Assembly (NCBI GenBank): GCA_963930775.1
Contig: OZ005701.1
Coordinates: forward strand, 8,377,669-8,441,668
DNA: 64,000 nt
Direction: 5' to 3'
Source: Cliona cf. orientalis
Lineage: Eukaryota; Porifera; Demospongiae; Clionaida; Clionaidae
Below the pieces are notes generated by a model. That model saw only the letters and a program-made list of their open reading frames with translations, did not search any database and was not told the DNA's origin. Shown one piece after another: positions 16,568 to 63,780 of this stretch. The position numbers and the translations under genes are program-made. The first letter of the stretch is position 1; every line of letters begins with the position of its first letter.

Positions 16568-17575
16568 CTACCAATACATGTCATTGTAGTATTCTTGCTC
16601 ACTGGAATCATCACTGTAGCTATCTGTGTAATAATATGACCCTGAATCATTAGTGATATGATCAGGGAGGGTTATACCCCGATGGTATGAGAGATGAAAT
16701 CGCTCCTGTTCAATTTTTGCCTCATTCTGTTCGCGAATCTTGCGTTTTTCCCAGTATGCTGTAGCTGCTACTATCACACTCACACTCTTGTATCGAGGCT
16801 TGTTGAAAGAATCAATGATCAACTGAGTACACTTAGTGCAGGGAAAATTCCATGAGTAGAGGATAAAGCACTTTGGTGGAATCCCGCGACTGTGCCTCAT
16901 GAATCCATTCCATAGCTGATCCAAATGTTCAAAAATCTCTTTTTCAGCATGGTGGTTAGCATTAATATCAGGCCTTGCAACTATGTAATTATGGTATTCC
17001 TTTTCATTATCGGGCATAGATAAGTTATCATTGTTAATAATGGGTGGATCATAAGGATGGAATTTCATTTGACTAATGTTTCTCAGATCTTCATCAGTCA
17101 CCAATACTAAGACAGCAAATTGATTCTGACGACCATAGAGTCTCTGTTTTTCAAATTTAGGAACTATTACATGCCTAATGAAATTATCAAAATCGTTAGG
17201 AGCACCAATCATACTTCTTACTTCATTCTCATGATAATGTGTATGATCAGACTGTGATTCATCCTTTTGGTCTTGAGTCATACTTTTTCTCACGGTTGAT
17301 GCCTCCTCATTGTCCTCAAGTTCACCATTAAATTCATCACAAGGAGACTCCAAGGGTTTAATAATATTATTTTCAACAGCAGTGGTAGCATCGTTATATA
17401 TAGTTTGCCAGTTGTCCAATGTGTTACTCTTGTCTCCATTCTCATCTTTTTGATGATCATCAGAATCTGATTGAATCCAATCTTGAGCTTTCTTGCTAGT
17501 TAAAGTGATTAAAGAATCAGAATGGTTTGGCCGTACTCTGTTTGAATGGCAGCACCTTCCAAAACACTGACCCAT
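16568..17575 (-). CDS. Deaminase-like protein A, candidate myristoyl/palmitoyl-anchored
   Basis: Intronless, 335 residues. The start MGQCFGRCC has Gly at position 2 and Cys at 4, 8 and 9, the usual look of N-myristoylation with palmitoylation. This would replace the transmembrane helix of its paralogues. Residues 40-120 are polar and acidic. The family domain covers about 128-300: FDNFIRHVIVPKFEKQR, QFAVLVLVTDED, HNYIVARPD, H209-A-E211 and P245-C246-x2-C249 preceded by YSW. These are the three zinc ligands and catalytic Glu expected of the cytidine deaminase fold. The tail is Ser/Asp/Tyr-rich and acidic. It is the only copy on the minus strand and diverges from copy B across about 340 bases. 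Target and activity are unknown. Assignment rests on the motif and on paralogy. Confidence 0.75.
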   Translation of the reverse strand: MGQCFGRCCHSNRVRPNHSDSLITLTSKKAQDWIQSDSDDHQKDENGDKSNTLDNWQTIYNDATTAVENNIIKPLESPCDEFNGELEDNEEASTVRKSMTQDQKDESQSDHTHYHENEVRSMIGAPNDFDNFIRHVIVPKFEKQRLYGRQNQFAVLVLVTDEDLRNISQMKFHPYDPPIINNDNLSMPDNEKEYHNYIVARPDINANHHAEKEIFEHLDQLWNGFMRHSRGIPPKCFILYSWNFPCTKCTQLIIDSFNKPRYKSVSVIVAATAYWEKRKIREQNEAKIEQERFHLSYHRGITLPDHITNDSGSYYYTDSYSDDSSEQEYYNDMYW

Positions 17576-17917
17576 AGTTAATTTGTTGTATTACTTCGAC
17601 CGCTTCTTTGATGCACCGCGTAGCATGTATGCTAGCTACAAGTTGCTGTATGTATCTGCATGCATACATGCTTTATAGTCCTGGAATATCAGCATGCACC
17701 ATGATGAGGCAATTTGTGGCAAGCTAGCAGCCTAGTATGTTTTGGTAATCAGAAGTACCAGGAATACAAAATTCATTAATGTACTAGGGGTGATCCTAGA
17801 TGTAGTTCAATTGTATTCATTATGCATGCTCGGCATGAAAGGTATGCTGAAATCTGTTATTCAAGGCAAAAGAATGTGCTTGATCAGCAAAATTCTATTT
17901 AATTTAGGGACCACAAG
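17576..17917. promoter_or_regulatory. Divergent intergenic region between deaminase-like A and B
   Basis: 342 bases between two divergent starts. It is AT-rich with repeated GCATGCA steps. No coding frame is convincing. It probably holds both promoters. Confidence 0.4.
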
Positions 17918-18502
17918 ATGGTGGACTATTATCTGGCGATCCTTGGCATTATGGGACTTATAATACTTATCATCCTTGCTTACAATCTCTACAAGAAGAT
18001 TATAGAATGTTGGAAAGTGATTGAGATGAATAAATTCAAAGAGTTTATCAAGGACAAAGTGATCCCGACATTTAACGAACAGCGCCAAGGAGAAAGTGAC
18101 GATAGATTTGCTGTTCTGCTGTTAGCAAGTAAAGCAAGCTTGTGGGGACTCAAAAATAGCTCATTCAAACGTGTGCATACAAGATTCTTCAGTAACCCTT
18201 TAGTCGATCCTTCCTTTCCTTCTTTCCCTCTTGAAAATGAGATCAAAAACTACATCTGTGCTAGAGCTGATCATGAGGAAAAGCACCCTGAGAGTATCAT
18301 ACTTGAAAGATTTGATGAACTTAAAAAAGCTTACCAGGAGCACTGCGATAAGAAAGTGAACTGCGCTCTGCTCTACTCGTGGAAGCTACCTTGTGCACGC
18401 TGTGTGGATGAGATTCTTGAAATCTTTGCCAACCGATACATGTACGTTGTGATTGCTTACTCTAAAGACAGCAACGCTATAATTCAGCTGTCAACAAGCT
18501 AA
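17918..18502 (+). CDS. Deaminase-like protein B, membrane-anchored, C-terminal frameshift
   Basis: 194 residues, intronless. Residues 5-22 are a strong transmembrane helix (LAILGIMGLIILIILAY) followed by Lys residues, which predicts a cytosolic C-terminal domain. The domain has FKEFIKDKVIPTFNEQR, RFAVLLLAS, KNYICARAD, H123-P-E125 and P158-C159-x2-C162 after YSW. The open frame ends IIQLSTS, but in the next frame 18478-18580 would encode a tail ending like the paralogues (a VIEVPYNR-type strand). This indicates a one-base shift near 18475 that removes the last strand, or a sequence error. Without that tail the fold may be incomplete, so this may be a recent pseudogene. Confidence 0.65.
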   Translation: MVDYYLAILGIMGLIILIILAYNLYKKIIECWKVIEMNKFKEFIKDKVIPTFNEQRQGESDDRFAVLLLASKASLWGLKNSSFKRVHTRFFSNPLVDPSFPSFPLENEIKNYICARADHEEKHPESIILERFDELKKAYQEHCDKKVNCALLYSWKLPCARCVDEILEIFANRYMYVVIAYSKDSNAIIQLSTS

Positions 18503-19807: not shown

Positions 19808-20714
19808 ATGATATTATCGATTATCGTGGTAGCCGTGATCATTATAATTTTGATCGTACTGGCTGATAAAGATCCGCCGCCAAGAACTACGCTTACCGCT
19901 GATACTGATAACCGGGCCTCTATGTCTATTGACGCTCGACCTGGGAATACAGTGCAGCAGGATCACGATCAAAATATTCATTCTCAGATACCTACCGTGT
20001 GTGTTACTGACAGTATTATGGTAATAGGTAGAAACGATGATACCTTTTGGTGTCCACCAACGAAGAAAGAAGAAGTGGGGGGACTGGTGCCTATCAAAGC
20101 AGGAAATGATTTCAATTCTTTCATCCACGATTACGTAATTCCTACATTCTGCTTTCAGAGAGTGAGGGGTCAACAGTTTGCTGTAATGTTTCTAAGCAAC
20201 TACGATAAGCACAATATTCACAAGACACAGTTTGGTGAGTGTAGCTATAATATATTGTTATTACAGCTACTTACAAACATTCATTTGTACAGATCCTCAC
20301 TGTAGAGTGTGTCCTAGGGCACTTGTTGATCCAAATCAATCACATTTTCCTTGTTACGTATTCCAACATCAGATTCTGGGAAATTATATTGTTGCACGGC
20401 CTGTCCGAAATGAAAACAAAAGACATGCTGAACAGGTTTTATTGGATGCGCAAGGAATATTAATCAGCAATTACACTCAGAATCATGGACAACAACCTCA
20501 ACTGATAGTCCTTTACTCGTGGCTAATGCCATGCTACAATTGTACAACACGGATAATTAAAACATTTAAAAACTGTAAGACCAGAGTGATGGTTGTATAT
20601 ACGTCTCACAGTCAAGCTAAAACGATGAAGTGGGACAAAAAGAGATTGGAGCAGGCCAATATGACTGTTATTCGTGTCAAGTACAATCGTCAACTTCCTT
20701 CTGTTAAACGTTAG
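19808..20714 (+). CDS. Deaminase-like protein C, membrane-anchored, two exons
   Basis: Exons 19808-20234 and 20293-20714 join in phase to give 282 residues. I chose the ATG at 19808 because the transmembrane helix follows at once (ILSIIVVAVIIIILIVLA, residues 2-19). A polar linker of about 75 residues leads to the domain: FNSFIHDYVIPTFCFQR, QQFAVMFLSN, GNYIVARPV, H187-A-E189 and P222-C223-x2-C226 after YSWLM, then VMVVYTSHSQ and a closing TVIRVKYNRQLPS. The frame is intact. The intron splits the domain between the first strand and the zinc site, unlike the single-exon paralogues. Function is inferred only from the deaminase signature. Confidence 0.75.
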
Positions 20715-21045: not shown

Positions 21046-21413
21046 ATGGAGAATGCTGCATCGGCAGGCATACCAATAGCTTTCGTGGCTCTATTTGCAG
21101 TCTGCGTGTATCTAATCTTCCGACAATCCTCTCATCGGCGACGCACCCGTGATTCACGCCAAGATCTTCATCATATACACGTAAGGGGGGTGAAGGTTGA
21201 TATAAAAATTATAATCATGGGCGGACTGTGCCAGACTGCATCTGATTTGATCCATCCTCATTTAAATTGAACTGGGCACACCATAATAATATTATACAAT
21301 ACGGCCAGTGGTGCTATTAATGCTTGACTCTCCATACCATTTAGGGTCCAGCAAACTTGGTAGAATTCATCAATGTTGAAGTGGTCCCCAAGTTGAGGGC
21401 CGAAAATGAATAG
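21046..21413 (+). pseudogene. Deaminase-like D: membrane-anchor exon and start of domain, then fused to TMUB fragment
   Basis: Exon 1 (21046-21180) encodes 45 residues with a transmembrane helix (GIPIAFVALFAVCVYLIF) and a basic stretch (SSHRRRTRDSR), ending at a good donor. Exon 2 starts at 21345 and encodes NLVEFINVEVVPK, the first helix of the deaminase-like domain. At about 21396 it switches abruptly into sequence of the TMUB last exon and stops at 21413. The zinc site is therefore absent. If translated, the product would be a membrane micro-protein of about 67 residues without catalytic domain. Confidence 0.6.
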
Positions 21414-21592
21414 CGACATGCCAACGATCTCTCTCGATTCTCAGTTTTGTGCCACTGTTTGGTGTGATATTAGGCATAGTTTGGGTGGGCTTGTTCTGTT
21501 ATCCTAGTGTCTTCACTCTGATTACTAAGTTGTTTCTATTCTTTTTGTCGGTTGGGTATATCTTACTGGCTTATTCTACATCTTTTGCATAG
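21396..21592 (+). pseudogene. TMUB last-exon fragment
   Basis: Nearly identical to the middle and end of the TMUB exon at 16137-16497 (from AGGGCCGAAAATGAA to the final ACATCTTTTGCAT). It has small indels around 21427-21445 and an early stop. It is joined directly to the truncated deaminase copy D. Confidence 0.8.
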
Positions 21593-21727
21593 TTTTTATG
21601 TTGTTGTTACACCCGCGTGATATTGCGCATGCGTGGAAAGAATCATGCGCGTGACATCATTATTGCTTAATAATAGTTTACGACTCCGAGCCTGATTCAA
21701 ACTTCGGAAGTAGAGCAGGGCAATACC

Positions 21728-22908
21728 ATGGATTATATAGCTTTAGCCGTTGGAGCTGCAGCAGCTGTAGGCGTCGGCATTTACTACCTATTAAAACAAC
21801 ATGATGAACAGCAGGTACATGTAGCTTTACCAGTTCGTAGACCCCAATTGCCGCGGCAACCTCAGGCCGGATTTCAACGCGGCGCGGCTCGAGCAGAAAG
21901 TGAAGAAGTACTGGTACCGGGGAAATACAGAGTGAGTCAATCAGTATATTAAATATATCATTAAACCATAGATCATGAATAAACGTATTCTGAATCAGTG
22001 AAAATTCTACACTCGAGAGTTGACTCAACTTGAAACTGAACTATAATATTATGTACAGGCACCGCGGAAGCTGGAACGTTTCATTCAAAATCAAGTGATT
22101 CCAAGTTTAAATTTGCAAAGAGACGATCGGAGTAGAGATCAATTTGCAGCTGTGATACTCAGTGACAAGGATTTAGACCAAATCAATGAGCTACGGTTAT
22201 GTAAGTTAATATAGGTAGCTAGTAGCAAGAGTATATAATTTGCTAGTACACTGTTAGCCTCGTCCCCGTTGAGAGGGGCCTGGGGACGAGGCTAGTACAC
22301 TGTAGCTATTTAATACACAATGAGAGAACGTTTATGCCAAGCCTTTAATTGTCTCTCAAATGGACCACACAATGTCATACAGATGCAAATAACGGCCAAC
22401 TAGTGAACTCCAATGAATGTTCCCATCCAGACAGCTCCAACCTTGTAAACTATATAGTGGCACGCCCAGATCATGATCGACATACCCGTCATGCAGAAGA
22501 GGTGCTTCTTGACAGGTTTAATGAACTATGGCGAAATTTTGGACGACGACCTTCTCTCATTCTGATCTTCTCCTGGCTTATGCCTTGCAACGAATGTACT
22601 GAAGATATCATCAATAGGCTTGGGTAAAAAAAAAACATTACAAACTTAATATTCCCACTGGGAATTTTATACATTGATAGTCATTGCATGCATGGCTTTA
22701 TCCGTTTGATTGTAGACATAGCTTCCCAGGTTTACCCGTATAATTATCCAATAGGTACTTGTGTGCACAACACCAGGTGATTGTTGTGTTCAGATCAAAT
22801 TACCCACTGTACACACCCCAAGTGAATGAAGAGAACAGAGGGAGGCTGACTGAAGCAAATTTCAGAGTTTACCATGTCAGCTATATTGAAAATCTTCCCA
22901 GGAACTAA
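21728..22908 (+). CDS. Deaminase-like protein E, membrane-anchored, four exons
   Basis: Exons 21728-21931, 22059-22200, 22383-22623 and 22755-22908 join in phase to give 246 residues with no interruption. Exon 1 encodes a transmembrane helix (ALAVGAAAAVGVGIYYLL, residues 5-22) and a linker. Exon 2 encodes LERFIQNQVIPSLNLQR and DQFAAVILSD. Exon 3 carries VNYIVARPD, H152-A-E154 and P183-C184-x2-C187 after FSWLM. Exon 4 encodes HQVIVVFRSNY and the closing FRVYHVSYIENLPRN. The spacing H-x-E-x28-P-C-x2-C is close to that of AID/APOBEC enzymes. Copies F and G share the exon layout. TGCGCATGCG at 21624-21633 lies about 95 bases upstream of the ATG. Confidence 0.8.
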
Positions 22909-23138
22909 CTATTATTGATTACTGGAACCCCTTGCTATAATATAGTTTGCAAACATAGATAGACTGATAGCTATAGATGGAATAGCCATGCAAAGGCATA
23001 TTGAATTAGATGGTAAATATTATTATAGCTAGTAGCCAATAATAATGTAGCTCCTAGTGTAGAAATCAGATTGGTAGTCTTGTATCACATTGTGCTGAAT
23101 AGCAATAGTCTGGTAGCATTAAGAAATTTTGGATCCAA
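22909..23138. repeat. Duplicated 3' flank shared with gene G
   Basis: This stretch matches 31692-31925 closely over about 220 bases (for example GCAAAGGCATATTGAATTAG in both). The exon-4 region and 3' flank of copies E and G were therefore duplicated as a block. Confidence 0.7.
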
Positions 23139-23345
23139 ATGCCATGTAACAGTTCCGGTTGTACCAAACTTCTCATCCAGAAATTTAAAACCTGTCCATG
23201 CAAAGTTATTGTTGCATACAATAATGACTGGACAAAGGCTATTTCAGACAAGGAGAATGAAGAAAGCAGGAACTTACTACATAGAACTGGCATTGATGTG
23301 TACCAAATTGGCTATAGATTCATCTTATCTTCACTACAACATTAA
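23139..23345 (+). pseudogene. C-terminal fragment of a deaminase-like gene
   Basis: The frame MPCNSSGCTKLLIQKF...VIVAYNNDWTKAISDKENEE...GIDVYQIGYRF matches the second half of the family domain (the P-C zinc pair, following strand, helix and last strand). The Cys pair is spaced P-C-x4-C instead of P-C-x2-C. No H-x-E half is found upstream. It is probably a relic. A very short gene is the alternative. Confidence 0.55.
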
Positions 23346-24227: not shown

Positions 24228-25816
24228 ATGGAGCATGTACTTTTAGCTGGAGCCGCTATTGGCACTGGTATTTACTACCTATTATGCACCTATCAATGTA
24301 ATGCCCCACTACCCCCCTCCCGGGCACCATAGGGGGCAAGGTGGGGATTTGACTAATTAACTTGTCAACTTCCCATATAGGAGGGGCCAGCCTGGTCCGT
24401 CAAATCCCTCCATCCACGGTGGGGAAACTATAGGGGATTTGACGAATATCAAATATATGCCTGTCAAATGCCCCTGTATGGGGCTTAGGTTTCTACGTCA
24501 ATCCCCCTATGTTGGCCCCTATTGTGCCCGGGAGGGGGGTAGTGGGGCATTACATTGATAGGTGCATTACGACAACATTGGCAGCAACAACATCCTGCTC
24601 AACCACGCCAAGCTCAGACTGGCGCTCACGTGGAAAGTGAAGAAGTACCATGCAGTGGACTTCAGGAAGTACAGAGTAAGCCAATCAGTAATGAAGTAAT
24701 CAGTGAAAACCTTACACCTGAGGGTTGATTTAAACTGAACTATAATTATACAGGCACCTTGGAAGCTGAAACATTTTATTCAAGATCATGTGATTCCAAA
24801 TTTAAATTTGCAAAGAAAAGATCAGTTTGCAGCTGTAATTCTGAGTGATAAGAATTTAAATCAAGTTGATAACCTTCGGTTAAGTAAGGGAATTACAATT
24901 TCATATAATTTGTAACTTATCTGTCAGATGGAGCACAAAAGTTATAACACGCCTGGCAGTAGCTTTAATCTACTACGGCATCATAGGTGGGATACACCTA
25001 ATTATCCTATTAAAGGCTCTGTATAAATAATAATAAATACATACACAAATGCCAACAGATGCAAATAACGATCAACTGGTGAATTCTGACAGATCCTCTC
25101 ATCCGGATAGCCCCAACCTTAAAACTACATAGTGGCACACCCAGATCGCACATGGGTCATCATGCAGAAGAGGTGCTTCTTGAGAGGTTTAATGAGCTAT
25201 GGCAAAAATTTGGACAATATCGACGACCTTCTCTCATACTGATCTTCTCCTGGCTTATGCCTTGCAACAAGTGCACTGAAGCAATCATCACTAGGCTTGG
25301 GTAAATTCCCACTGGGAATTAAATTGTGTATTCATTACATCCCTAGTAGCAATTTACTTTTTCTGAAACAAGCAATATTATCCCAGTAAGGGTATCGAAT
25401 CATGAAATTTGGCACAGATATAGGTGAATATGCATGGAAAATGATTCTGTAAATACTTTAAAGTTTGTCATCTCTTTCATTTTCAAGTTATTCCACTTCA
25501 AAGCATTTGATGATTACGTAACATTGCATAACTCAAGTATGCTACTTACATACTTAGTCTGTGACCCTTTACCACATACAATGAAGCTACTAGGGATGTG
25601 GTAATCGTTTCATATTTATATTGGCTACTCACTAGTTCATACTTGTAATTCCACTTTAATAGGAACTTATGTGCACGATACCAGGTGATTGTGGTGTTCA
25701 AATCAAACTACCAACTATATACCCCGGAAGTGAATGAAGAGAACAGAGAGAAGCTGACTGCAGCAAATTTCAAAGTTTACCGTGTCAGCTATGCTGAAAA
25801 TCTTCCCAGGAATTAA
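24228..25816 (+). pseudogene. Deaminase-like F, four-exon copy broken by a MITE and a frameshift
   Basis: Same layout as gene E: exon 1 from 24228, exon 2 at 24754-24883, exon 3 at 25059-25300, exon 4 at 25663-25816. Exon 1 encodes the membrane helix (LLAGAAIGTGIYYLL) but is split by a 282-base MITE at 24285-24566 that brings stops. In exon 3 a deletion near 25124 turns NYIVARPD out of frame and creates a stop. The rest still reads HHAEEVLLERFNEL and FSWLMPCNKC. Exon 4 is intact to ENLPRN. Two independent lesions make a functional product unlikely. Confidence 0.75.
24285..24566. mobile_element. MITE with about 40-base perfect TIRs and TTA target duplication, copy 1
   Basis: Begins TGCACCTATCAATGTAATGC and ends with the exact complement. 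The inverted match continues through CCCCTCCCGGGC. TTA flanks both ends (24282-24284 and 24567-24569). A 3-base TTA/TAA duplication is the hallmark of the PIF/Harbinger superfamily. There is no transposase frame, so it is non-autonomous. It is inserted in exon 1 of pseudogene F. Confidence 0.85.
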
Positions 25817-26400
25817 TAATAGCTAGCTAGGCATAATATATTATAGCTTGACTGGACCCTTTATCATAGCTGCATACATGTATAGATCCAGATGCATAGC
25901 ATACTAAGTTTATATATATAGCCAAGACTAGCTAGTATAGTTATGTGGCAGACAGATTGGTAGTTTCAGACAATTATACTGCCTCTAATAATATAGTACA
26001 TTCTTAGATCTAGCTACTGCATGATACTGTATAAACATAAATAGTTGCTTTGGATATGATAATTTTGCTTTCACCTTAATTACAATCACCATGATGACAT
26101 TGTTGTATAATAACGACATTCATGGGTGTGCCCTTAACGCATGCGCGGTAATTAGGGGGTGTAGCTATTGATTTTGCCCGCGCTTTGGCCACCACAGGAA
26201 AAAATGGTGAGTCAGATCTACAACACTGAGTTGCACTAATCTTTTGTTTTTTTTTCTTCTTTAATAGCTTCAGCATTAGCTAGATCTACATGCTGTAGTC
26301 TATGAATAACTGTTTTAGTATAAAACAGATATCAGATCATCTCAGTGACATCAGCTGCAGAGGCGTGTTTATAGAGTAGCTGGATATAGTACGTAGGGTC
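25817..26400. other. Intergenic; promoter-like block duplicated before gene H
   Basis: The part from about 26090 to 26340 resembles 31990-32280: CGCATGCGC (26138-26146), TTTTGCCCGCGCTTTGGC, then ATGGTGAGTCAGA, a likely donor after a 5' exon. No full coding frame is present. Confidence 0.5.
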
Positions 26401-26688
26401 CCTTCGTCCACCAAGGGGGTTCCATGACTTCATCAGGGATCGAGTCGTCCCAGCCTTCAAGGAACAGAGAGGCATCAACCAGAACCAGTTTGCCGTCTTG
26501 CTCATGCTGTGTTAGTTTCAGAAGAGGAATTTAAGCATCTTGATTCGATGACATTTCGTCCCTCCAGGGAACCTCTTACCGACTGCCTAGAAGTCTCAAT
26601 GCCATCGGAAAGAAAGTGGTAGCTATAGAAACGACATCGTAGCGAGGTATGAGAGTGTCAGAGAAAGCAGTGATGAGCGGCTGACCCT
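26401..26688 (+). pseudogene. Deaminase-like H' , 5' half of a copy of gene H
   Basis: Close copy of gene H from its CTTCGTCCACCAAGG start through FHDFIRDRVVPAFKEQR and QFAVLL to just before the zinc-binding His. It has small insertions (about 26505 and 26620) that break the frame. At about 26688 it switches into TMUB exon 2 sequence, so the catalytic half is missing. Confidence 0.75.
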
Positions 26689-27244
26689 GAGGGGGAGGGG
26701 ACGATTCTCTTATTACCATTTGGCTGATCATGTATGGCTCAACGACAAAATCGGTTCAAGTCAGCCCAACCACAATATGAGAATGTACAAGAAATTGTTA
26801 CATCACCATCCATAATTATACCGTTAGCTATTATAATATTATTATAACACTATGACATTGTTCTTATTCAATTATACCTACAGGGTGCATTTCAGTCAAG
26901 AGATTTCAGAGAATCGGCCGGTGAAGTTCATCTATCAGGGACAAGTTCTCAATGATGAATCTGCCACCCTGCTTAGCCTCAATATCACTGATGGATGCCC
27001 TATACATGTGCACATCGGCAGGCCTCGTGAAACACCACAGCAGAGGGCCGAAAATGAACAGCGACATGCCAACGAGTTCCTAGATCTCTCTCGATTCTTC
27101 GTACCACTGTTTGGTGTGATACTAGGCATAGCTTGGGTGGGCCTGTTCTGTTATCCTAGTGTCTTTACTCTGATTACTAAGTTGTTTCTGTTCTTTTTGT
27201 CGGTTGGGTATATCTTACTGGCTTATTCTACATCTTTTGTATAA
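26689..27244 (+). pseudogene. TMUB partial copy (end of exon 2, intron, whole exon 3)
   Basis: Matches 15936-16497 including the intron, so it arose by DNA duplication and not retroposition. The end of exon 2 lost about 15 bases around 26772 including the donor context. Exon 3 (26885-27244) is intact for about 119 codons and ends TSFV. Without exon 1 and most of the linker it cannot make a normal TMUB protein. Confidence 0.8.
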
Positions 27245-27263
27245 TAACGTTGACGTTGGTGAC

Positions 27264-30700: not shown

Positions 30701-31691
30701 GCCTTGTGTGTGTGCTGTGGTGATCTTGAGTACTAACGTATTGCAGTGGCCACTGGTACTGAACCTCTCAACACTGATCATATACTCTGAGTTTCTAGGC
30801 TCTATTAGGAGCATAGATGGCCTTGTTTCCGATTGTATGGGCATCCAGCTCAACTATGTGGTGGTTTCTGGACAATATTTTTACAGTAATACTCGGGATG
30901 ACTATAATATTATACTGTAGTGTGTGAATATTACATACATGCATGTTTCTGATTATGTGGCACTTTTATCTGCTTAGTGTGCATGGTAGCTCCTTAGATG
31001 ATTTCCAACAAGCTCTAACTGCGCCGCAGGCGCAGTTAGAGCGGGTGGAAATCATCTAAGGTACTTGGTATTGTTACTATGGTATACCAATGCTAAATTG
31101 TACAGCCACTGTACACTGATTAAATTATTGTGGGCTAGGGTAGCTGTTTTGAACATGACTTGACTATGGATGCTCTACTGAAGAATAGTTTTAGTGACAT
31201 TAGATGTTGTTACCATAGTAATATATACCAAATGTACATAAAGTATTGCAGTGTATGTATCAACATGGTAAACGATCAATATAAAATAAGCCTAAGTGCG
31301 TATTAATTTGTGCGAACCTATACAATGCAGGTACGTAGACTTATGTGCCGCAGTTTTTTTTTCTGCTTAGTGTGCACGGTAGCTTGAAAAAAAAAAAAAA
31401 TCATTACAAACATGATATTCCCACTTTGAAATGGGAAATACATTGATAGTCATTGGCTATATCCATTAATTTTATTCATCTTGATTGTACAAGCTTTCCA
31501 GGTTAATTTTTTGTAATTATCCCAATAGGTACTTGTGTGCACAACACCAGGTGATTGTTGTGTTCAGATCGAACTACCCACTGTACACACACCAAGTGAA
31601 TGAAGAGAACAGAGAGAGGCTGATTGCAGCCAATTTCGAGGTTTACCATGTCAGCTATACTGAAAATCTTCCCAGGAACTATAATGAATAG
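27707..31691 (+). CDS. Deaminase-like protein G, membrane-anchored, four exons with long introns
   Basis: Exons 27707-27898, 29045-29174, 29834-30065 and 31529-31691 join in phase to give 238 residues. I took the ATG at 27707 because the transmembrane helix follows (LLFAGFLFAAVVLCLCLFF, residues 2-20), ending in CREG. The domain has LISFVRNQVIRELNWQR, DQFAAVVLSD, VNYIVARPD, H141-A-E143, P172-C173-x2-C176 after FSWLM, then HQVIVVFRSNY and YHVSYTENLPRNYNE. The layout equals gene E, but introns 1 and 3 are 1.1 and 1.5 kb and hold repeats. The frame is intact and all splice sites are canonical, so I consider it a real gene. Confidence 0.78.
27970..28888. mobile_element. Putative TIR element with GC-rich GTGCCGGTGCC ends inside intron 1 of gene G
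   Basis: The left end (GTGCCGGTGCCGCCGGTGTA) is mirrored by the right end (TACACCGGCACCGGCACC). Inside each end lie short blocks naming a GATATGG motif between G or C runs, again in inverted arrangement. No target duplication could be fixed, so boundaries are approximate. Confidence 0.5.
30598..30770. repeat. Tandem duplication in intron 3 of gene G
   Basis: A unit of roughly 100 bases starting CCTAGCCTTGTGTGTGTGCTG (first 20 quoted in part) occurs twice in a row. The second copy is slightly shorter. It is non-coding. Confidence 0.65.
30992..31061. repeat. Long hairpin in intron 3 of gene G
   Basis: CCTTAGATGATTTCC...AGCTCTAACTGCGCC is followed after a few bases by its complement. This gives arms of about 33 bases with a short mismatch in the middle. 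It could be a small foldback element. Confidence 0.7.
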
Positions 31692-32286
31692 CTAGGCGCT
31701 GGAACCCCTTGCTATAGTTGCGGACATAGATAGACCAATAACTATAGATGAAATAGCCGTGCAAAGGCATATTGAATTAGATGGTAAATATTATTATAGC
31801 TAGCTATAGTAGCCAATAATAATGACATTGTAGCTCCTAGTGTAGAAATCACATTATGATAGTCTTGCATCACATTGTGCTGAATGTCATAGTCTTGTAG
31901 CTTGTAGAAATTTTGGATCCATACTGCATGACACTATACATGAATGCAAGTAAACAATTATTTGTGTTTACGTAACACTGATAATTCGGTATGACAGTTT
32001 TGTGTGAACACGTTTTGAATAACAAAATTCATGACAATTAACGCATGCGCATGCGCTGTAATTAAATAAGGGGGCGTAGCTACAGCTTTTGCCCGCGCTT
32101 TGGCAGATAGAAGGAAGCCAAAATTATGGTGAGTCAGACAGTAGTTATCAGATTTACAACTCAGTTTAGGTACACTAATCTTTATGCGGATTGCTTTTCT
32201 TTTAGCTTCAGATTTAATAGTTACAAGCCATTCTCCGAGGCTGAGTATAATAAAACTGATATCAGATCATCTCAAGGTTCAGCTTA
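31692..32286. promoter_or_regulatory. 3' flank of gene G and candidate promoter/5' exon of gene H
   Basis: 31692-31925 matches the 3' flank of gene E. From 31990 onward, ACGCATGCGCATGCGC (32041-32056) is followed by TTTTGCCCGCGCTTTGGC and an ATGGTGAGTCAG at 32126, where GTGAGT looks like a donor. An acceptor (ttttag) follows at about 32204. In the frame I tested, the exon after it hits a stop quickly, so it is more likely untranslated. Confidence 0.45.
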
Positions 32287-32576: not shown

Positions 32577-32621
32577 TTACTCTGAGCTCATTTGCTGGTT
32601 ACAGTACATAGGCCTCCGATC

Positions 32622-33627
32622 ATGTCTCTTCGTCCACCAAGGGGGTTCCATGACTTCATCAGGGATCGAGTTGTTCCAACCTTCAAGGAACAGAGAGGCA
32701 TCAACCAGAACCAGTTTGCTGTCTTGCTATTAGTTTCAGAAAAAGAATTTAAGCATCTCGACTCGATGACATTTCGTCCCTCCAGGGAACCTCTTACTGA
32801 CTGCCTAGAAGTCTCAATGCCATCGGAAAGAAAGCGGTATCGAAACTACATCGTAGCAAGGTATGAGAGCGTCGGAGAAAGCTGTGATGAAGCTGACCCT
32901 GTTGATCGCCATTCCGAAGAGACTATAATCAGCGAGCTGGACCACCTCTGGGAGGGATATATGAAACTCACGAAGGGTGTGGAACCAAAATGTTTCATTC
33001 TCTACTCATGGAATTTTCCCTGCACAGACTGCACCGATACGATCATCAGTGCATTGAAGCATCCACCGTACAAAGGAATAAGCATGATTGTGGCATTTTC
33101 ACAACATTGGAGGGGGGAGACGTCCATGCAGGAATGTCTACCTCAATAGGAAGGAGATGAGGAAAAAGGGGATTTACTTCACAAAAGTCAACGGTGTCAA
33201 GCTCAATGATTCTGATTCGGATAGTGATTCAGATGATTGCAGTGAATCAGAATCTGATGATAGTGATAATGAGGAGGATGATTCGGATGATCAATATCCT
33301 TTTGACGATGATGATTTTGGTTGGGATGATCTCACTGATGCACATGATCAAGAGTACGATTTTGATTCAAGTGATCCACAAGATTTTGATGATGACCACA
33401 GTGATATGTATGATTTTGATGACGATATTGATATAGATGATATGGATGATTTCAATGGTGGTTACAATGATTTCTACAATATTGCTTATAATAGCGATGA
33501 AGATTCTAGTGATCACGATGATATCACTGATTGCGATGAAGCTGAATCAGAAGACGACAGTGAACTCTATTCTGACGATTCATGTGACAGTTACGATGAT
33601 GAATATGATGATGATGAATATGACTAG
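32622..33627 (+). CDS. Deaminase-like protein H with long acidic tail; frameshift in a G run
   Basis: From the ATG at 32622 the frame encodes FHDFIRDRVVPTFKEQR, NQFAVLLLVS, RNYIVARYE, R-H-S-E (zinc His and catalytic Glu), YSWNFPCTDC and MIVAFSQHW. It stops at 33149 after a G homopolymer near 33113. The neighbouring frame from 33115 continues with RKEMRKKGIYFTKVNG, the expected end of the domain. It then runs through about 145 residues that are mostly Asp, Glu, Ser and Tyr, to a stop at 33627. The acidic frame is too long and too biased to be chance, so either the G run has one base too many in this sequence or the gene is a very young pseudogene. No transmembrane helix precedes the domain from this ATG. 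An upstream exon could supply one. Confidence 0.65.
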
Positions 33628-34721: not shown

Positions 34722-35357
34722 ATGGTGTCCACGATCTCATTGCTAGGCATTGTTGCTGCCATAGTCATCATTGTCATCTCTCTATTTCCAAGTCTTCTGA
34801 ATCGATTTCGAGGATCTGGTAACTCTGAAAAAGACATCATCAAGTTTGTACGTACCAAGATCATCCCCTTCTTTCACCAACAGCGAAAGAGCGGTGAGCA
34901 ATTTGCAGTCCTCCTTGTGACAAGCTCAACAACCTCCATAAAGAACACGAAGTTCAAGCCAAGCAAGGGCTTCTGGGGTGAGCCACTGACTGACTCAAAC
35001 CAGCTCACCTTCCCACCCAGAGCTAAGATCTCAAACTACGTCGTGGCTAGGCCAGCAGATGGACATCACGCAGAAAGGCTCCTCTTAGACAACTTGAATA
35101 CGGTTCTGACTCTCGATGATCCTCCACCCCTTGTCCTGTTCTATACCTGGACTATGCCCTGCACAGCATGCACTATGGCCATCGCAAGGGCTCTGGGAAA
35201 CAGAAAGAATGTAGTCTTGGTGTACACCGCAAACAAGAAGGAGATTAATCCCGACGAAAACGCAAAGAATAAGAATAAGTTGGTGGAGTCAGGGATACAG
35301 GTGATTCAGGCAGAGTACAAGGAAGGCCTGCCATCTTTAGACCTACAGAGTGGATGA
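34722..35357 (+). CDS. Deaminase-like protein I, membrane-anchored, intact single exon
   Basis: 211 residues, intronless, no lesions. Residues 6-25 are a transmembrane helix (SLLGIVAAIVIIVISLF). The following residues NRFRGSG are basic, predicting that the domain faces the cytosol. The domain has IIKFVRTKIIPFFHQQR, EQFAVLLVTS, SNYVVARPA, H116-A-E118 and P146-C147-x2-C150 after YTWTM, then VVLVYTANKK and a closing IQVIQAEYKEGLPSL. The spacing H-x-E-x27-P-C-x2-C is the shortest in the cluster and equals that of AID. The codon third positions are richer in G and C than in the neighbouring copies. It is one of the best candidates for a functional enzyme here. Confidence 0.8.
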   Translation: MVSTISLLGIVAAIVIIVISLFPSLLNRFRGSGNSEKDIIKFVRTKIIPFFHQQRKSGEQFAVLLVTSSTTSIKNTKFKPSKGFWGEPLTDSNQLTFPPRAKISNYVVARPADGHHAERLLLDNLNTVLTLDDPPPLVLFYTWTMPCTACTMAIARALGNRKNVVLVYTANKKEINPDENAKNKNKLVESGIQVIQAEYKEGLPSLDLQSG

Positions 35358-53299: not shown

Positions 53300-55376
53300 T
53301 TATACTCTGAGATTGAGTGAGTGCCATGGAAATGAATCTAGTTTCCTATTGTCCATATTAACAGTAAGGCGAGCTTGTAGGTTATCCTGGCTCAGTCGAG
53401 TTGAGAATTTGTCTTTAGTGAGATTCATACTGGAGAAACCACGTTCACATTCGACCGTGTCTGGACTCATACACATCAGAATCATTGCAAGCAATCCAAA
53501 TTGATCATACTCTGGCATCTGTGTTATTTTGCAGAAGAAGGTATCGGGTTGCTGTTCACAATTGATGAAGAGATGAGTAAGAGATTCATCATTCCTGTAA
53601 ACACTGTACTGCATCTTTGCAGTTATGACATTGACTGAATCTTTGCAGTATTTTTGGATGACTGCCTCTATATCACACCTAGAATGCTTCCTATTTGTAG
53701 GACAGAGAAAGCTCATGTTATGGACAACAAAGTCCATTTCTGGGAAACGCGACTCAAGTGATCTTCCAATGGCAACAGTGAAGTTGAAAACATTCTTCAT
53801 GACTTCATGTAATTGAGCATTGGAGAGCTGGCCACTCGATATTGCTTGCTCCTTGAACTGTTGAAATTGGCTACTCTCAAAGTCTATGTCATCAATATCT
53901 GTTCGGATATTACCATCTTGCATACCATCATCCACTTGGTTAAGTATAGGCTCAAGGAAGGCATTCTTGAAACTAGCTATTTTCTGGTATGATGTGAAAA
54001 GGTCTTGGTTGCTCTTTTGAAGTTGAGTGTTGATACTGGCTAGGATTGGTAGACGACTTTGGAGAAAATAAAGATACAACTGAAATTGCGGGTCTACTAT
54101 TCCATCATGAATCTCTTGAAGTTTAGCACGCTCACTTGGTCGATTTGCAGTGTTCTGTGCTTCCTGCTCAAAGTAGCGTACTATCTCTGGCAATAGATCT
54201 GTGAACCTTTGAACACAGTCATTTAGCGACAACCACCGGACTTTGTGGTATGTAACCAACTGTTGATATTCATGCTCCTCTTCACTCATTTCAATAATGG
54301 CTTGGAGCTTTTCCTTACGCACATGGCTATTTTTGAAATACCTCATCACATCATCTACTGTCTTATGCACACTGTTTGGTAGTTTTTCAAGCCCATCCTT
54401 AGCTGCTAGAGCCTGTCTATGCACAATACAATGTTGGGTGAAAATTGAAGGGTTGTAGTTCCTCCTGAGGTGTCCTGATACGCCTCTTCCTTCAGACCGC
54501 ATGACTGAAGCTCCATCGCTAGCGAAAGATACCAGTTTCTGCTTTGGTAAAGTATGTGATTCTACATATGCATTCAAAGTTTCATATAGCTATAGGTTAT
54601 CGGCATTTGGGCTACCTTCTACCCTCAGTATTGTCAGGAAGTTAGTCCTAATGCAGCACAATTCCATGTCAGCATACCTGGAATATAGGATTGCCTGCGC
54701 AAAGTCACCTTTATCAGTGCACGCTTTCATCCATTTGAATACCCCAGCATGGAGAAGACTGAATCTTTGATAGATTCTCAGTCTGGATGAAATCAGCCAT
54801 TTCAGATACACGTCGTGTGAGAGTTTGCCGACTTTTTGGCATAGTCGGGAAGACCTTTGACTCGGGGTCACTCGAAGTTGCCCACTCAACAACTGCCTCA
54901 CCAAATGCCAATGGCTTGTGATGTTTCACAAGAGTAAACCCTAATTTGTATGAAGCTAGCTGTGGTAAGGTGCTCGAGACGAATGTCTGTGAAAGACATT
55001 GCTGCATTTGTTTCAGCTTTTGTTTTGCCTGCTGTACAAAAAGCTTCCTTTTTTTATCACTCCACTCCTTGGTATCAGGATGCATACTCTCACAGTGCCT
55101 TTGCAGGTTATATTTCTTTACAGTATCTATTCTACCGTTACATTTCAAACAAGTACAAGTATCTGTTTTACTATCATATGATACAAGATAAGTGGTCTCC
55201 CACTCGGGGTGCCATAGGCGCCTACAGTCTCCCGGCTTACGTTTTTTGTTGCTAGTCTCCTCAGTGTCACAGCGTCGGTCACCACCGCTACTGCTGGCAC
55301 CAGACTCCGAGCCAGAAGCATCAGACAAACTTGAGTCCAACTCTGAGGCCGATCTTTTACGAGCAAAACGTAGCAT
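53300..55376 (-). pseudogene. hAT transposase (ZBED/KIAA1586-like), frameshifted
   Basis: The first frame (55376 down to 54714) has an acidic Ser-rich start and a BED-like zinc finger (CTCLKCNGRID...LQRHCESMH). It then enters the RNase-H-like catalytic fold at WGIQMDES, where Asp is the likely first catalytic residue. It breaks there by a one-base shift. The continuation carries an in-frame stop at about 54590, after which 425 codons run to 53300. These include FASDGASVM (second catalytic Asp), QHCIVHR, and a C-terminal dimerisation region with DTVECERGFSSMN. The two lesions make it inactive unless read-through occurs. Domesticated relatives exist in animals, but the lesions argue against that here. 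Confidence 0.8.
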
Positions 55377-55719: not shown

Positions 55720-59658
<3,939 letters not shown>

Positions 59659-59983: not shown

Positions 59984-60832
59984 ATGGAAACTTCCACTGT
60001 TATTGCTGTAGTGGTCTCCGTTGTTGGGTTGGCCACTGTGGCAGTATTTGTGTGTTGCTGCTCTTTGTACTATTGTTGCTGTAGAAACCGTAGTAGTAGT
60101 AGTAGAGCTGCTGGAAGAACCACAAGTCACCACACTAGGCGTAGTGGTTGGGGATCTCCTGGTATAAATCTTGAATCTGGATTGTTTTTTGAACCTCACC
60201 GATTGCAAAGACCTGCTGTTGAGACTGATGGGCCAGACAGCAGACAAGCCACTCACCTGCCTCGCAACTTTCGTGACTTTATTGTTCAGAAAATTATTCC
60301 TTACTTTATTGATCAGCGCCTGACCGCTTACCAGTTTGCCGTTGTGGTCCTGCTATCGGAGGATGATTTCAATAATATCTGTCGGATAAGATTCTCACCT
60401 TCCAGTTTCCGGGGGAAACCGATTCTTGATAAAACTTTCTCAATTATGCCTCAAGATCTCACAAAGTATAGAAATTATGTCATAGCTAGGCCCGACGGTA
60501 ATGACTGTCATTCTGAAGAAGAGATATTTGGGCAGTACTCAGTGACAGGTAGCCCCTTCAGTCACCTGTGGCGTTCTTACGTGGAGCACGCTGGTGCTTA
60601 TCCTAAATGTGTCCTGATCTACTCGTGGAACTTACCTTGTAGTCGGTGCACAGATGTTATCATCAGATCGCTGAGAGAGGAGCCATACAACAGAGCGAGT
60701 GTCATAGTGGCACATACCATATTTTGGAGATCTGAGACTGAGTCCCAACACGAAATGAATACTGAGAAACTGAAATGTGAGAATATTACTGTGAAACAGA
60801 TACCATATCCAATCCAACTTCCACCAGCATAG
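59984..60832 (+). CDS. Deaminase-like protein J, membrane-anchored with Cys clusters
   Basis: Intact, intronless, 282 residues. Residues 6-23 are a transmembrane helix (VIAVVVSVVGLATVAVFV). CCC at 24-26 and CCC at 31-33 follow, then a basic Ser/Arg stretch. The cysteines are likely palmitoylation sites and the basic stretch predicts a cytosolic domain. The domain starts at about 95: FRDFIVQKIIPYFIDQR, YQFAVVVLLSEDD, RNYVIARPD, H176-S-E178 and P218-C219-x2-C222 after YSWNL, then SVIVAHTIFW and a closing ITVKQIPYP. The segment between Glu and the Cys pair is 39 residues, longer than in copies C, E, G and I, because of an insert (GQYSVTGSPFSHLW). Copy L is its closest paralogue, and K is the third member of this tandem subgroup. 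Confidence 0.8.
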   Translation: METSTVIAVVVSVVGLATVAVFVCCCSLYYCCCRNRSSSSRAAGRTTSHHTRRSGWGSPGINLESGLFFEPHRLQRPAVETDGPDSRQATHLPRNFRDFIVQKIIPYFIDQRLTAYQFAVVVLLSEDDFNNICRIRFSPSSFRGKPILDKTFSIMPQDLTKYRNYVIARPDGNDCHSEEEIFGQYSVTGSPFSHLWRSYVEHAGAYPKCVLIYSWNLPCSRCTDVIIRSLREEPYNRASVIVAHTIFWRSETESQHEMNTEKLKCENITVKQIPYPIQLPPA

Positions 60833-61556: not shown

Positions 61557-62372
61557 ATGGAATACTTGGCCAGATATGTTGATAGTGCTAGTTGTTACTA
61601 TAACAACAGTGGTGATGTTGGAGTACACATTTCAAGCACTCTAACATCTTGGTCATCAGAACCAACTGATGCTGAGTTTTGTCAGCAAGAATTACAAGTT
61701 CTCACTAATCCTCCTACTGATGATGTGTGCAGTAGTGTTGAGAGTGATGAAGAGCCTGAGAATTATCCAGATATTATCTCTTCGCTGTGGCCTGCATCAA
61801 TTATTATTGAGAGACCTCGATATGTGCCGGACCAGTTTCATGACTTCATTAATCAAATAATCATCCCCAATTTCAGAGGTCAATGCAAATCTTACTCCAA
61901 GCAGTTTGCTGTTGTGATGCTACTGTCTGCACTTGATCTTCTTAACATCAAGGGGATGAGCTTCTATCCTTCTGATCTCCTGGGGAAGCCAATTCTGGAC
62001 AATGCAGTTGCGGTGATGCCAAGAAATTCAGCAATCTACAGAAACTATATTGTTGCTAGAATTAATAATAAGTGTCACTCGGAGAAGAAACTGTTTGGAA
62101 ACTGTTCTGAGTTGACTGATACTCCTTTCAATCATCTGTGGAGAGCTTACCTCAAGCACTATCGTTCCCATCCTAGGTGCATCCTGATATATTCTCGGAA
62201 CTTTCCATGCAGTCGCTGTACTGACTTGATACTCAAATGTGTTGGAGAACCCCCCTACAGCAGCGTGAATACAATAGTAGCACATACTAAGTTTTGGAGT
62301 AAGGATACTCATCATGAAATGAGCAGGATGAAGTTGGAGAGTAAGAATATATCAGTGGAACGTATATTATGA
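61557..62372 (+). CDS. Deaminase-like protein K, no membrane helix, altered SW motif
   Basis: Intact, intronless, 271 residues. Unlike J and L the N-terminus (MEYLARYVDSASCYYNN...) has no hydrophobic helix and is acidic around residues 54-72. The domain begins at about 92: FHDFINQIIIPNFRGQC, KQFAVVMLLSA, RNYIVARIN, H174-S-E176 and P217-C218-x2-C221. The usual YSW before the Cys pair reads YSRNF here, so the conserved Trp is replaced by Arg. In the first helix the conserved Gln-Arg is replaced by Gln-Cys. The zinc site itself is complete. The protein may be soluble, or its anchor may be encoded in a missed upstream exon. Confidence 0.75.
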   Translation: MEYLARYVDSASCYYNNSGDVGVHISSTLTSWSSEPTDAEFCQQELQVLTNPPTDDVCSSVESDEEPENYPDIISSLWPASIIIERPRYVPDQFHDFINQIIIPNFRGQCKSYSKQFAVVMLLSALDLLNIKGMSFYPSDLLGKPILDNAVAVMPRNSAIYRNYIVARINNKCHSEKKLFGNCSELTDTPFNHLWRAYLKHYRSHPRCILIYSRNFPCSRCTDLILKCVGEPPYSSVNTIVAHTKFWSKDTHHEMSRMKLESKNISVERIL

Positions 62373-62853
62373 TAATTTTTATAATCAATGACATTATATC
62401 TAGCTATATATTTTTATTATTGTGCGCTAACATCACATGGCACACAATTAGTAAAATAATTAATTTTACATTGTATATATTATTATGGCATTGGTACAGT
62501 CATCATGATTCCAATATTATTATTCAGACTCGATATTATTGATGTACCACATTGCAATAATAACAGTGTATCTCCATATTGGATTACGTAATCCGAAATT
62601 TGTGCCAAAAATAGCAACAAGTTACTCCACAAGGGGGTGGGGGTGTACCCTGGGTTTTTCTGAGTATCTCTCCATATAATATTATATTATACTTTCCTGT
62701 GTATAATTCATTCTTCTATGTCAACACCTGCTCAAATTCTACATGACTGCTGATTTGATTTGAGAAGGGATTTAGGCTAGCAAGTATAATTATTATTAGC
62801 TACAGCTAATCTGTATCTATTAACTAGAGTGCTAGAGCAAAAGTATCTGATTC
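62373..62853. promoter_or_regulatory. Upstream region of deaminase-like L
   Basis: No gene. AAAAATAGCAACAAG is followed by TACCCTGGGTTTTTCTG (62646-62662), matching the block before gene J. A palindrome GGATTACGTAATCC lies at 62581-62594. Confidence 0.45.
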
Positions 62854-63780
62854 ATGGATATTTCTCAACTATTGTCTACACACCCAGTTGGAACAGCTGT
62901 TATAGCTATTGCAGTAGCTATTATATTATTATGCTGCTGTTGCTGTTGCTGTTGCTGTAATACTAACCATACTCCTAGAAAATCCACCTATCGTGGTATT
63001 AATAGGGTTACACCAAGTTACCTTGAATCTGGATCATTGAATGATTTTGAACTACCCATAAAGCCACCCAACCGTCGCACTAAGGGAGGTTATGTACGTG
63101 TTAACAACTCAGAATGTGAGACAGATGTTCCAGAAGAGTATCCTAATCTTCATATTCCTACAGTTAATGTCAGTCAAGAGAGGCCAGTCACTCATCTGCC
63201 TCACCATTTTTCTGACTTTGTCATTGATAAAATCATCCCTTATTTCCTTGGTCAGCGCAGGAGAGCTTATCAGTTTGCCGTTGTGGTGTTACTGTCGGAG
63301 AACAATTTTGACAACATCTATCAGACCGGCTTCACTCCATCTAGATCTGATTCTGGGAAGCCAATCATTGATAATGATTACATATCAATGCCTCGAGATA
63401 GGACAGAGTACGGAAATTACATCGTAGCTAGACCCCTCTCCAATAGCTATCACTCTGAAGAAGAGATATTTGGGCAGCACTCTGTGACGGATAGCCCCTT
63501 CAGTCATCTGTGGAGTTCTTACGTGAAGCACGCCGATGCTTATCCTAAATGTATCCTCATCTATTCGTGGAACTTGCCATGTAGTCGGTGTACAGAAGTT
63601 ATCATCAGATCACTGAGAGAAGAGCCATACAACAAAGTGGGCGTCATAGTGGCACATACTCAACTTTGGCCATCAGAAATACTTAGTGAAAACAAGAATA
63701 ATAGGGAGAACCTAACTCATAACAACATTACTGTACAACAGGTAGCATATCCTACTCGTATCTCTCCTGCAAGTGACTGA
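62854..63780 (+). CDS. Deaminase-like protein L, membrane-anchored with nine consecutive cysteines
   Basis: Intact, intronless, 308 residues. A transmembrane helix (VGTAVIAIAVAIILL, residues 12-26) runs directly into nine Cys (27-35), a striking candidate for multiple palmitoylation. A linker of about 80 residues leads to the domain: FSDFVIDKIIPYFLGQR, YQFAVVVLLSENN, GNYIVARPL, H200-S-E202 and P242-C243-x2-C246 after YSWNL, then GVIVAHTQLW and a closing ITVQQVAYP. It is closest to J, with long identical blocks (for example EEEIFGQ and LREEPYN), showing recent tandem duplication. Function is inferred only from the deaminase signature. Confidence 0.8.
   Translation: MDISQLLSTHPVGTAVIAIAVAIILLCCCCCCCCCNTNHTPRKSTYRGINRVTPSYLESGSLNDFELPIKPPNRRTKGGYVRVNNSECETDVPEEYPNLHIPTVNVSQERPVTHLPHHFSDFVIDKIIPYFLGQRRRAYQFAVVVLLSENNFDNIYQTGFTPSRSDSGKPIIDNDYISMPRDRTEYGNYIVARPLSNSYHSEEEIFGQHSVTDSPFSHLWSSYVKHADAYPKCILIYSWNLPCSRCTEVIIRSLREEPYNKVGVIVAHTQLWPSEILSENKNNRENLTHNNITVQQVAYPTRISPASD

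What the first reader, a model, noticed from the sequence alone, without database searches (positions are those of the whole stretch)
16568..63780. A clustered, rapidly expanding family of deaminase-like genes, most with a membrane anchor
Ten full or nearly full copies (A, B, C, E, G, H, I, J, K, L) and at least four relics (D, F, H', fragment at 23139) share one domain order: a helix ending in (Y/F)xxQR, a QFAVxxL strand, a NYIVAR strand, H-(A/S/P)-E, SWxxPCxxC, a VIVA strand, and a last VxxVxY strand. This is the order of the cytidine deaminase fold. Seen in sequence: the shared motifs, the intact frames, and the copies flanking ORC4, collagen and a LOTUS/Tudor gene. Inference: an expanding effector family in a conflict with viruses or mobile elements.
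Basis: partly seen in the sequence, partly recalled or inferred. Interest (0 to 1): 0.9.

Follow-up and report, generated by a model that had tools for sequence, protein, structure and literature searches.

The report
Membrane-tethered sponge APOBEC-like deaminase cluster
A marine sponge carries a growing cluster of genes that look like the virus-mutating APOBEC enzymes of vertebrates, but most appear built to sit on a membrane facing into the cell, which hints at a tethered form of this old animal defence.

Summary
The window has 11 genes of one deaminase-fold family plus two fragments; the cluster runs 20 kb further. Chromosome lengths match the sponge Cliona cf. orientalis. Pfam (marginal scores), AlphaFold and Foldseek place the domain with AID/APOBEC; geometry alone does not separate it from other deaminases. 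Zinc ligands stand in 117 of 120 listed database proteins. Two genes that read as broken by eye (D, H) are intact four-exon genes. The unusual part is the leader: 7 of 11 window genes start with a transmembrane segment, often followed by cysteines and basic residues; A has a myristoyl/palmitoyl-like leader; a mosaic gene just outside the window joins A's leader to a body whose 91% identical twin has a transmembrane leader upstream. Both would leave the enzyme in the cytosol, unlike secreted-type relatives on chromosomes 1 and 2. Best reading: membrane-tethered C-to-U mutators against invading nucleic acid. Activity, substrate and topology are inferred. Sponge AID/APOBEC relatives are known; the tethered class is a new variant.

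The parts
16568..17575 (-). copy A: one open frame, MGQCFGRCC leader (myristoyl/palmitoyl-like), deaminase domain, short acidic/Tyr tail
   Evidence: (SNAD1 25.4 bits, cut-off 25)
17918..18502 (+). copy B: TM + basic residues, HPE...PCARC; frame changes at about 18460-18490 before the last strand
19808..20714 (+). copy C: two exons (19808-20234, 20293-20714), phase-1 intron, TM, HAE...PCYNC
21728..22908 (+). copy D: four-exon gene with open frame (21728-21931, 22059-22200, 22383-22623, 22755-22908), phases 0/1/2, TM in exon 1
23109..23342 (+). fragment: domain from the PCxxC helix to the end
   Evidence: E 3.4e-7
24228..25816 (+). copy F: pseudogene of the D/H type; inverted-repeat insertion in exon 1 (about 24284-24567) and frame change at NYIVAR
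26390..26619 (+). fragment of an E-like copy beside a duplicated TMUB-like segment
27707..31691 (+). copy H: four-exon gene with open frame (27707-27898, 29045-29174, 29834-30065, 31529-31691), phases 0/1/2, TM in exon 1
32622..33149 (+). copy E: no anchor, HSE...PCTDC; frame changes at about 33088-33150, beyond which a strongly acidic stretch stays open to 33627
34722..35357 (+). copy G: one open frame, TM + basic residues, HAE...PCTAC; second AlphaFold model
59984..60832 (+). copy J: one open frame, TM with CCCSLYYCCC then basic residues
61557..62372 (+). copy K: no TM; SRNFPC instead of SWNxPC and a short C-terminus, may be decaying
62854..63780 (+). copy L: one open frame, TM + nine cysteines + basic residues; first AlphaFold model
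15942..16492 (+). TMUB-like segment (name recalled; ubiquitin family, 23.6 bits, under cut-off, for the copy at 26.8 kb) duplicated with the cluster; also 21396-21588 and 26689-27239

Best explanation
A short N-terminus with no or negative charge, one hydrophobic segment, then basic residues and often a cysteine run that could be palmitoylated would thread the protein N-out/C-in, leaving the deaminase in the cytosol; A and its neighbour M would reach the same place with a myristoyl/palmitoyl-like MGQCFG leader. There the enzyme would deaminate cytosines in single-stranded DNA or RNA of viruses, retroelements or engulfed microbes as these cross or bud from membranes. Copies turn over by block duplication, leader exchange, intron loss (perhaps retrocopying) and decay. 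SHOWN by computation: family, fold, zinc ligands, gene models, leaders, duplications. INFERRED: topology, lipidation, catalysis, substrate, antiviral role.
For: AID/APOBEC placement: Pfam at or over cut-off for A (SNAD1), G (NAD1; APOBEC2 at the cut-off) and C (NAD1); of 80 members scanned at E <= 0.01, 38 match SNAD1, 29 APOBEC_N, 26 SNAD4, 22 NAD1, against 4 for the general dCMP/cytidine deaminase family. Fold: copy L has 186 of 308 residues at pLDDT >= 90, order a1-b1-b2-a2-b3-a3-b4-a4-b5; all 50 listed Foldseek rows are AID/APOBEC entries by title; for G 49 of 50, the other T4 dCMP deaminase. Zinc site: HxE...PCx2-3C in 117 of 120 listed proteins, two of which are J and L themselves; H 79/80 and E, P, C, C 80/80 in the aligned set. 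Anchor: TM-like segment in 84 of 108 proteins with a countable leader (12 of 120 not counted); of the 84, 70 are more positive after the segment, 8 before, 6 equal; 58 have 3 or more cysteines at or after its end. Leader exchange: M (C13:8443586) has A's leader (42% identity, pairwise E 5e-30) on a body 91% identical to R, and upstream of R, in another frame, stands a TM leader. Turnover: three collinear pieces of 77-95% identity; pairs with dS 0.01-0.15, two of the four on C13. Selection: dN/dS by NG86 0.34-0.60 in 8 of 9 pairs from the C13 cluster and B/C17, 0.85 in L/O.
Against: C and H are not more positive after the segment, so their orientation is open. K, E, N and T show no anchor. By YN00 two recent pairs are near or above 1 (L/O 1.39, M/R 0.86), which is as well explained by relaxed constraint. 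Total cysteine number does not separate the leader types. Geometry alone ties AID/APOBEC with RibD, Rib2, dCMP deaminase, TadA and yeast cytosine deaminase; Foldseek TM-scores are under 0.5. A bacterial toxin-type deaminase family (XOO_2897) also matches weakly, 9 of 80. Sequence search of solved structures found at best APOBEC2 at E 0.64. Most window copies fall below Pfam cut-offs and L matches none. R, used for the leader exchange, is itself out of frame between leader and body. No expression data, no activity test. Two window copies lose frame after the zinc site.
Confidence: 0.5

Rival explanations
1. The hydrophobic leaders act as signal peptides or type II anchors, and the deaminase is outside the cell or in the lumen, as proposed for the secreted SNAD enzymes.
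For: The nearest named families include SNAD1 and SNAD4; five copies on chromosome 1 and one on chromosome 2 of the same genome carry plain signal-peptide-like leaders; six fish SNAD1 are predicted membrane-anchored (PMC11004436, passages); C and H lack the basic flank.
Against: In 70 of 84 proteins the more positive side follows the segment, 8 the reverse; the cysteine run follows it too; the five chromosome-1 copies each have two cysteines after the zinc pair, whereas 15 of 16 other genome copies tested and 104 of 117 listed proteins have none or one; an MGQCFG leader on the same body makes sense only for a cytosolic enzyme.
Confidence: 0.2
2. The domain no longer edits polynucleotides: it is a nucleotide-level deaminase or a non-catalytic APOBEC2-like binder.
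For: Fold geometry ties with RibD, dCMP deaminase and TadA; APOBEC2 is among the Pfam matches (17 of 80) and among the Foldseek rows of G, with T4 dCMP deaminase; the motif reads SWxxPC rather than the SW-S-PC of vertebrate AID/APOBEC (the latter recalled).
Against: Zinc and proton-shuttle residues are kept across diverged copies; expansion and turnover are unusual for a housekeeping nucleotide enzyme; most top Foldseek rows are AID/APOBEC entries.
Confidence: 0.2
3. The enzymes diversify the sponge's own receptors or transcripts, as AID or lamprey CDA does.
For: Same superfamily; lamprey CDA genes serve receptor assembly (PMC13428168, passages).
Against: A membrane tether would keep the enzyme out of the nucleus; many changing copies fit restriction factors better. 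Both are arguments, not tests.
Confidence: 0.05
4. The copies are cargo of a mobile element rather than host effectors.
For: Inverted-repeat insertions sit in and beside copies; a zf-C2H2_12 gene lies at 54.7-55.4 kb.
Against: Copies differ in introns and leaders, and the self-comparison showed no element boundary common to them; no relatives were found for G in phage records, for A3 in viral contigs or for A2 in prokaryote genomes at the sensitivity of those searches.
Confidence: 0.03

Closest known systems
SNAD family of secreted AID/APOBEC-like deaminases (SNAD1 in fish and other vertebrates, SNAD4 in sponges; Krishnan et al. 2018 not held, known here through passages of PMC11004436 and PMC8201067)
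   Same: Deaminase domain matched by PF18744 and PF18750; lineage expansion; sponge occurrence; five C1 copies and one C2 copy have signal-peptide-like leaders, and the C1 copies extra C-terminal cysteines.
   Different: The window copies carry a TM leader with cysteines and/or basic residues, a lipidation-like leader, or none; 0-1 cysteines after the zinc pair; most score below the SNAD cut-offs.
APOBEC3 restriction factors of mammals
   Same: Fold, zinc motif, cluster, turnover by duplication, recombination and possibly retrocopying (PMC7263822, abstract).
   Different: No membrane anchor in APOBEC3 (recalled); 6-20% identity in the Foldseek rows; SWxxPC instead of SW-S-PC (recalled).
NAD1 / NAD2 (Pfam 'Novel AID APOBEC clade' 1 and 2)
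   Same: C, G and the chromosome-17 copy reach the NAD1 cut-off; 12 of 80 members match NAD2.
   Different: Leaders as above; matches are partial and barely over threshold.
Sea urchin AID-like genes (PMC5956068, passages)
   Same: Multigene family of invertebrate AID/APOBEC-like deaminases, nine sea urchin loci.
   Different: The passages read say nothing of a membrane leader; not compared by sequence here.

Membership tests
AID/APOBEC superfamily | cytidine deaminase fold with helix 4 between strands 4 and 5 | tested here: met
   AlphaFold models of L and G; strand direction itself not measured; the feature is shared with ADAT and dCMP deaminases (recalled)
AID/APOBEC superfamily | HxE ... 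PCx2-4C zinc/proton-shuttle motif | tested here: met
   117 of 120 listed proteins; 10 of 10 window copies other than F by reading
AID/APOBEC superfamily | profile match to AID/APOBEC families better than to general deaminase families | tested here: met
   scores are marginal (at most 29 bits) and L itself is unmatched
AID/APOBEC superfamily | structural similarity specific to AID/APOBEC among deaminases | tested here: inconclusive
   Foldseek yes; VIA-align ties with RibD, Rib2, dCMP deaminase, TadA
AID/APOBEC superfamily | C-to-U or dC-to-dU activity on single-stranded polynucleotides | not testable with these tools
   needs expression and assay
SNAD (secreted) | cleavable N-terminal signal peptide | tested here: inconclusive
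   by hydropathy and charge only, no signal-peptide predictor: A, E and K lack one; B, D, G, J, L look like N-out/C-in anchors; C and H are open. Five C1 and one of two C2 copies read look secreted
SNAD (secreted) | C-terminal cluster of three cysteines (PMC11004436) | tested here: not met
   0-1 cysteines after the zinc pair in A, B, E, G, J, K, L; B and E are cut short by their frame changes
SNAD4 (PF18750) | score at or over curated cut-off of 27 bits | tested here: inconclusive
   G 26.9 bits as protein, 27.8 in the genome search; D exon 3 27.1; others below. In that search 8 of 14 control genomes rang, none over the cut-off

The most novel reading that the evidence does not exclude
Sponges run a two-armed mutator defence: one tandem family of AID/APOBEC-like enzymes is secreted, and a related family is tethered to the cytosolic face of membranes, with the tether itself the selected feature, since a transmembrane leader and a myristoyl/palmitoyl leader are interchangeable on the same body. 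Deaminases placed at the site of viral entry, budding or phagocytosis would be an animal strategy that I have not seen described for APOBECs.
Probability: 0.35. Interest if true: 0.8.

Novelty: new variant of a known kind. Interest (0 to 1): 0.6.

Why it matters
Vertebrate AID and APOBECs are thought to come from an old immune deaminase stock. A sponge with secreted-type, membrane-tethered and untethered versions in one genome, some recently duplicated and with intact zinc sites, gives concrete genes with which to ask what the early animal enzymes edited and where. The tether is easy to test, and a small open-frame deaminase such as G (211 aa) is a practical candidate for biochemistry.

Tried and rejected
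Sequence search of solved structures with L alone and with alignments A2 and A3: no useful match (best deaminase hit APOBEC2, E 0.64). Relatives of G in phage records, of A3 in viral contigs and of A2 in prokaryote genomes: none. Viral structure library with the L model: one match under E 0.001, a phage CMP/dCMP-type deaminase. APOBEC_N family search of the own genome: no match, and no control rang, so uninformative. Family searches of the own genome with controls: SNAD4 11 matches, 4 over cut-off, 8 of 14 controls rang, none over cut-off; NAD1 6 matches, 3 over, 1 control; SNAD1 2 matches, 1 over, 1 control. Total cysteine and sequon counts as topology markers: do not separate the classes. 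Rfam on the window: nothing. Column entropy: variable columns are spread widely, not clearly confined to substrate loops, so no claim of diversifying selection there. dN/dS for A/E failed by both methods; YN00 also failed for C1c/C1d and A/M. The row labelled Q is in fact the 119-codon piece at C13:8451021 (Q'), picked up by my script instead of the one at 8441813; no conclusion hangs on it. Papers: seven topical searches listed no paper on membrane-tethered AID/APOBEC enzymes in sponges; the written form with a slash cannot be searched for, so they are weak; one search was for the species. Krishnan et al. 2018 is not held, so whether it notes TM leaders is unknown.
Full report
WHAT IS THERE. 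A profile HMM from seven window copies recovers 19 of 2072 ORF pieces at E <= 2.3e-4; the reversed window gives 3 of 2179 at E <= 1, best 0.019. In my lettering the window has 11 genes: A, B, C, D, F, H, E, G between 16.5 and 35.4 kb, and J, K, L between 59.9 and 63.8 kb, plus two fragments. Genome-wide, merging by hand the places at E <= 0.001, I count 42 places on 7 contigs: C13 22 (11 in the window, 11 in the next 20 kb), C1 9, C2 5, C4 2, C18 2, C7 1, C17 1. The searches score only their best candidates, so copies may be missing, and the 42 include fragments. Three more, of another subtype with SPCPxC, lie on C8 and C18; two of the three were scanned, and both pass the cut-offs of APOBEC3 and AID. 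A weak C16 place (E 0.043) was dropped.

WHOSE GENOME. Contig lengths of 37,495,003, 14,801,553, 11,506,086, 9,989,510 and 8,925,284 bases for C1, C2, C4, C7 and C13 agree with the 37.5, 14.8, 11.51, 9.99 and 8.93 Mb of chromosomes 1, 2, 4, 7 and 13 of Cliona cf. orientalis odCliOrie1.1 (PMC12639293, passages with part of Table 3). The held copy has 216.79 Mb in 149 contigs, the paper gives 217.17 Mb in 307 scaffolds. The identification is by length only. The window lies about 0.5 Mb from the end of C13.

GENE STRUCTURE. The stretches at 21.7-22.9 and 27.7-31.7 kb resolve into four exons each, all introns GT-AG, phases 0, 1, 2, one open frame, 246 and 238 residues. C has two exons, and its intron falls in the same alignment column and phase (1) as the second intron of D and H. 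A, G, J, K, L are single open frames. In the tree (56 rows: 27 of this genome, 29 of the 120 database proteins; H without exon 1) G and its database kin group with intron-bearing C at modest support (87/79), and C, D, H, G, B and the C4, C7 and C17 copies, with their kin, separate from the rest at 98/88; long branches limit trust in single joins. Intron-bearing and intronless members side by side suggest intron loss or retrocopying; retrocopying is a known route for APOBEC3 in primates (PMC7263822, abstract). F is a pseudogene. B and E change frame between the zinc site and the last strand; E's following frame stays open for a very acidic stretch of about 150 codons. Whether these are real, polymorphic or assembly errors cannot be told.

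ZINC SITE. HxE...PCx2-3C stands in 117 of the 120 listed proteins (121 found; P0001 and P0002 are J and L); the exceptions are one H-to-N change and two proteins without the PC part. In the 80-row alignment H is 79 of 80 and E, P, C, C are 80 of 80, at a mean column identity of 20%. dN/dS by NG86: L/O 0.85, J/L 0.34, K/N 0.50, K/T 0.49, N/T 0.47, M/R 0.60, Q'/S 0.39, B/C17 0.39, A/M 0.40; C4a/C4b 0.24; secreted-type C1a/C1b 0.10, C1d/C1e 0.68, C1c/C1d 1.28 on very few changes; A/E failed. YN00 gives 1.39 for L/O and 0.86 for M/R. This is purifying selection on the whole, loose in recent pairs; no positive selection is claimed.

ANCHORS. Window copies B, C, D, G, H, J, L start with a hydrophobic segment of 19-31 residues, 0-10 residues from the start. 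In B, D, G, J, L the flank after it is more positive than that before; in C and H it is not. J and L carry 6 and 9 cysteines in or just after the segment. Of 120 listed proteins 108 have a countable leader; 84 have such a segment (Kyte-Doolittle >= 1.9 over 19 residues), 24 do not; of the 84, 70 are more positive after it, 8 before, 6 equal, and 58 have three or more cysteines at or after its end. These proteins were found with a profile of these very copies, their organisms are not named, and they are not independent. A and its neighbour M start MGQCFG and fit the PROSITE N-myristoylation pattern (pattern recalled; fit computed); none of the 120 does. M is a mosaic: residues 1-156 match A's leader (42%, pairwise E 5e-30), the rest is 91% identical to R. 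Upstream of R, in another frame, stands a TM leader with basic flank, and P0019, a TM-type protein, shares the same linker. Thus one body occurs with two unrelated leaders, both of which would leave the domain in the cytosol. E, K, N and T have neither.

SECRETED SISTERS. Five C1 copies (8.96-8.98 Mb) and the C2 copy at 9021860 start with signal-peptide-like leaders, judged by eye and hydropathy; a second C2 frame read shows none, and three C2 places were not fetched. These six group together at 100/98. The five C1 copies each have two cysteines after the zinc pair; 15 of 16 other genome copies and 104 of 117 listed proteins have none or one. SNADs are described as secreted and with a C-terminal cluster of three cysteines, and SNAD4 as found only in sponges (PMC11004436, PMC8201067, passages).

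EXPANSION. A block of about 5.8 kb with K, L, Q and M recurs 8-9 kb further on as N, O, Q' and R, in three collinear pieces of 77, 90 and 95% identity. Three copies of a TMUB-like segment travel with the cluster. Pairs with dS 0.01-0.15 (L/O, M/R, C1c/C1d, C4a/C4b) mark recent duplication.

HOW IT MOST LIKELY WORKS. Inference: a tethered mutator. The leader places a cytosine deaminase at the cytosolic face of the plasma or endosomal membrane, where single-stranded DNA or RNA of entering or budding viruses, retroelement particles or engulfed microbes would pass. The secreted arm would act outside. Expansion and leader exchange fit an arms race. None of activity, substrate, expression or location has been shown.

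NOVELTY. Sponge AID/APOBEC relatives and lineage expansions are known. A cytosolic, membrane-tethered class with exchangeable leaders was not seen in seven topical paper searches, which are weak because the slashed name cannot be searched, and the founding paper could not be read. I rate it a new variant of a known kind.

Noticed in passing
C1:8976105-8977517 (L027) and C1:8980266-8981510 (L028): Two secreted-type copies end in a long run of RPRFEDRWGGKWEEKE-like repeats, frames of 471 and 415 residues; 394 of 408 aligned residues identical, dS 0.012.
   Followed up: partly
window 33150-33627: Strongly acidic Asp/Ser stretch of about 150 codons open after copy E, in another frame; might mimic nucleic acid or autoinhibit if it is translated.
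   Followed up: no
window 24284-24567 and 32286-32577: Two copies of one inverted-repeat element in opposite orientation, one inside exon 1 of F and one just upstream of E, 87% identical.
   Followed up: partly
window 53303-55376, minus strand: A frame with a zf-C2H2_12 (Spin-doc) finger, 50.6 bits, followed by a frame without Pfam match that looks transposase-like to me (recalled look, untested).
   Followed up: no
C4:10964631-10965512 and C4:11018267-11019118, minus strand: Paralogues with SWLMLCSKC, leucine in place of the zinc-motif proline, 93% identical, dN/dS 0.24.
   Followed up: partly
window 61557-62372: Copy K has arginine in place of the tryptophan before the zinc cysteines that is invariant in 80 of 80 aligned members.
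   Followed up: no
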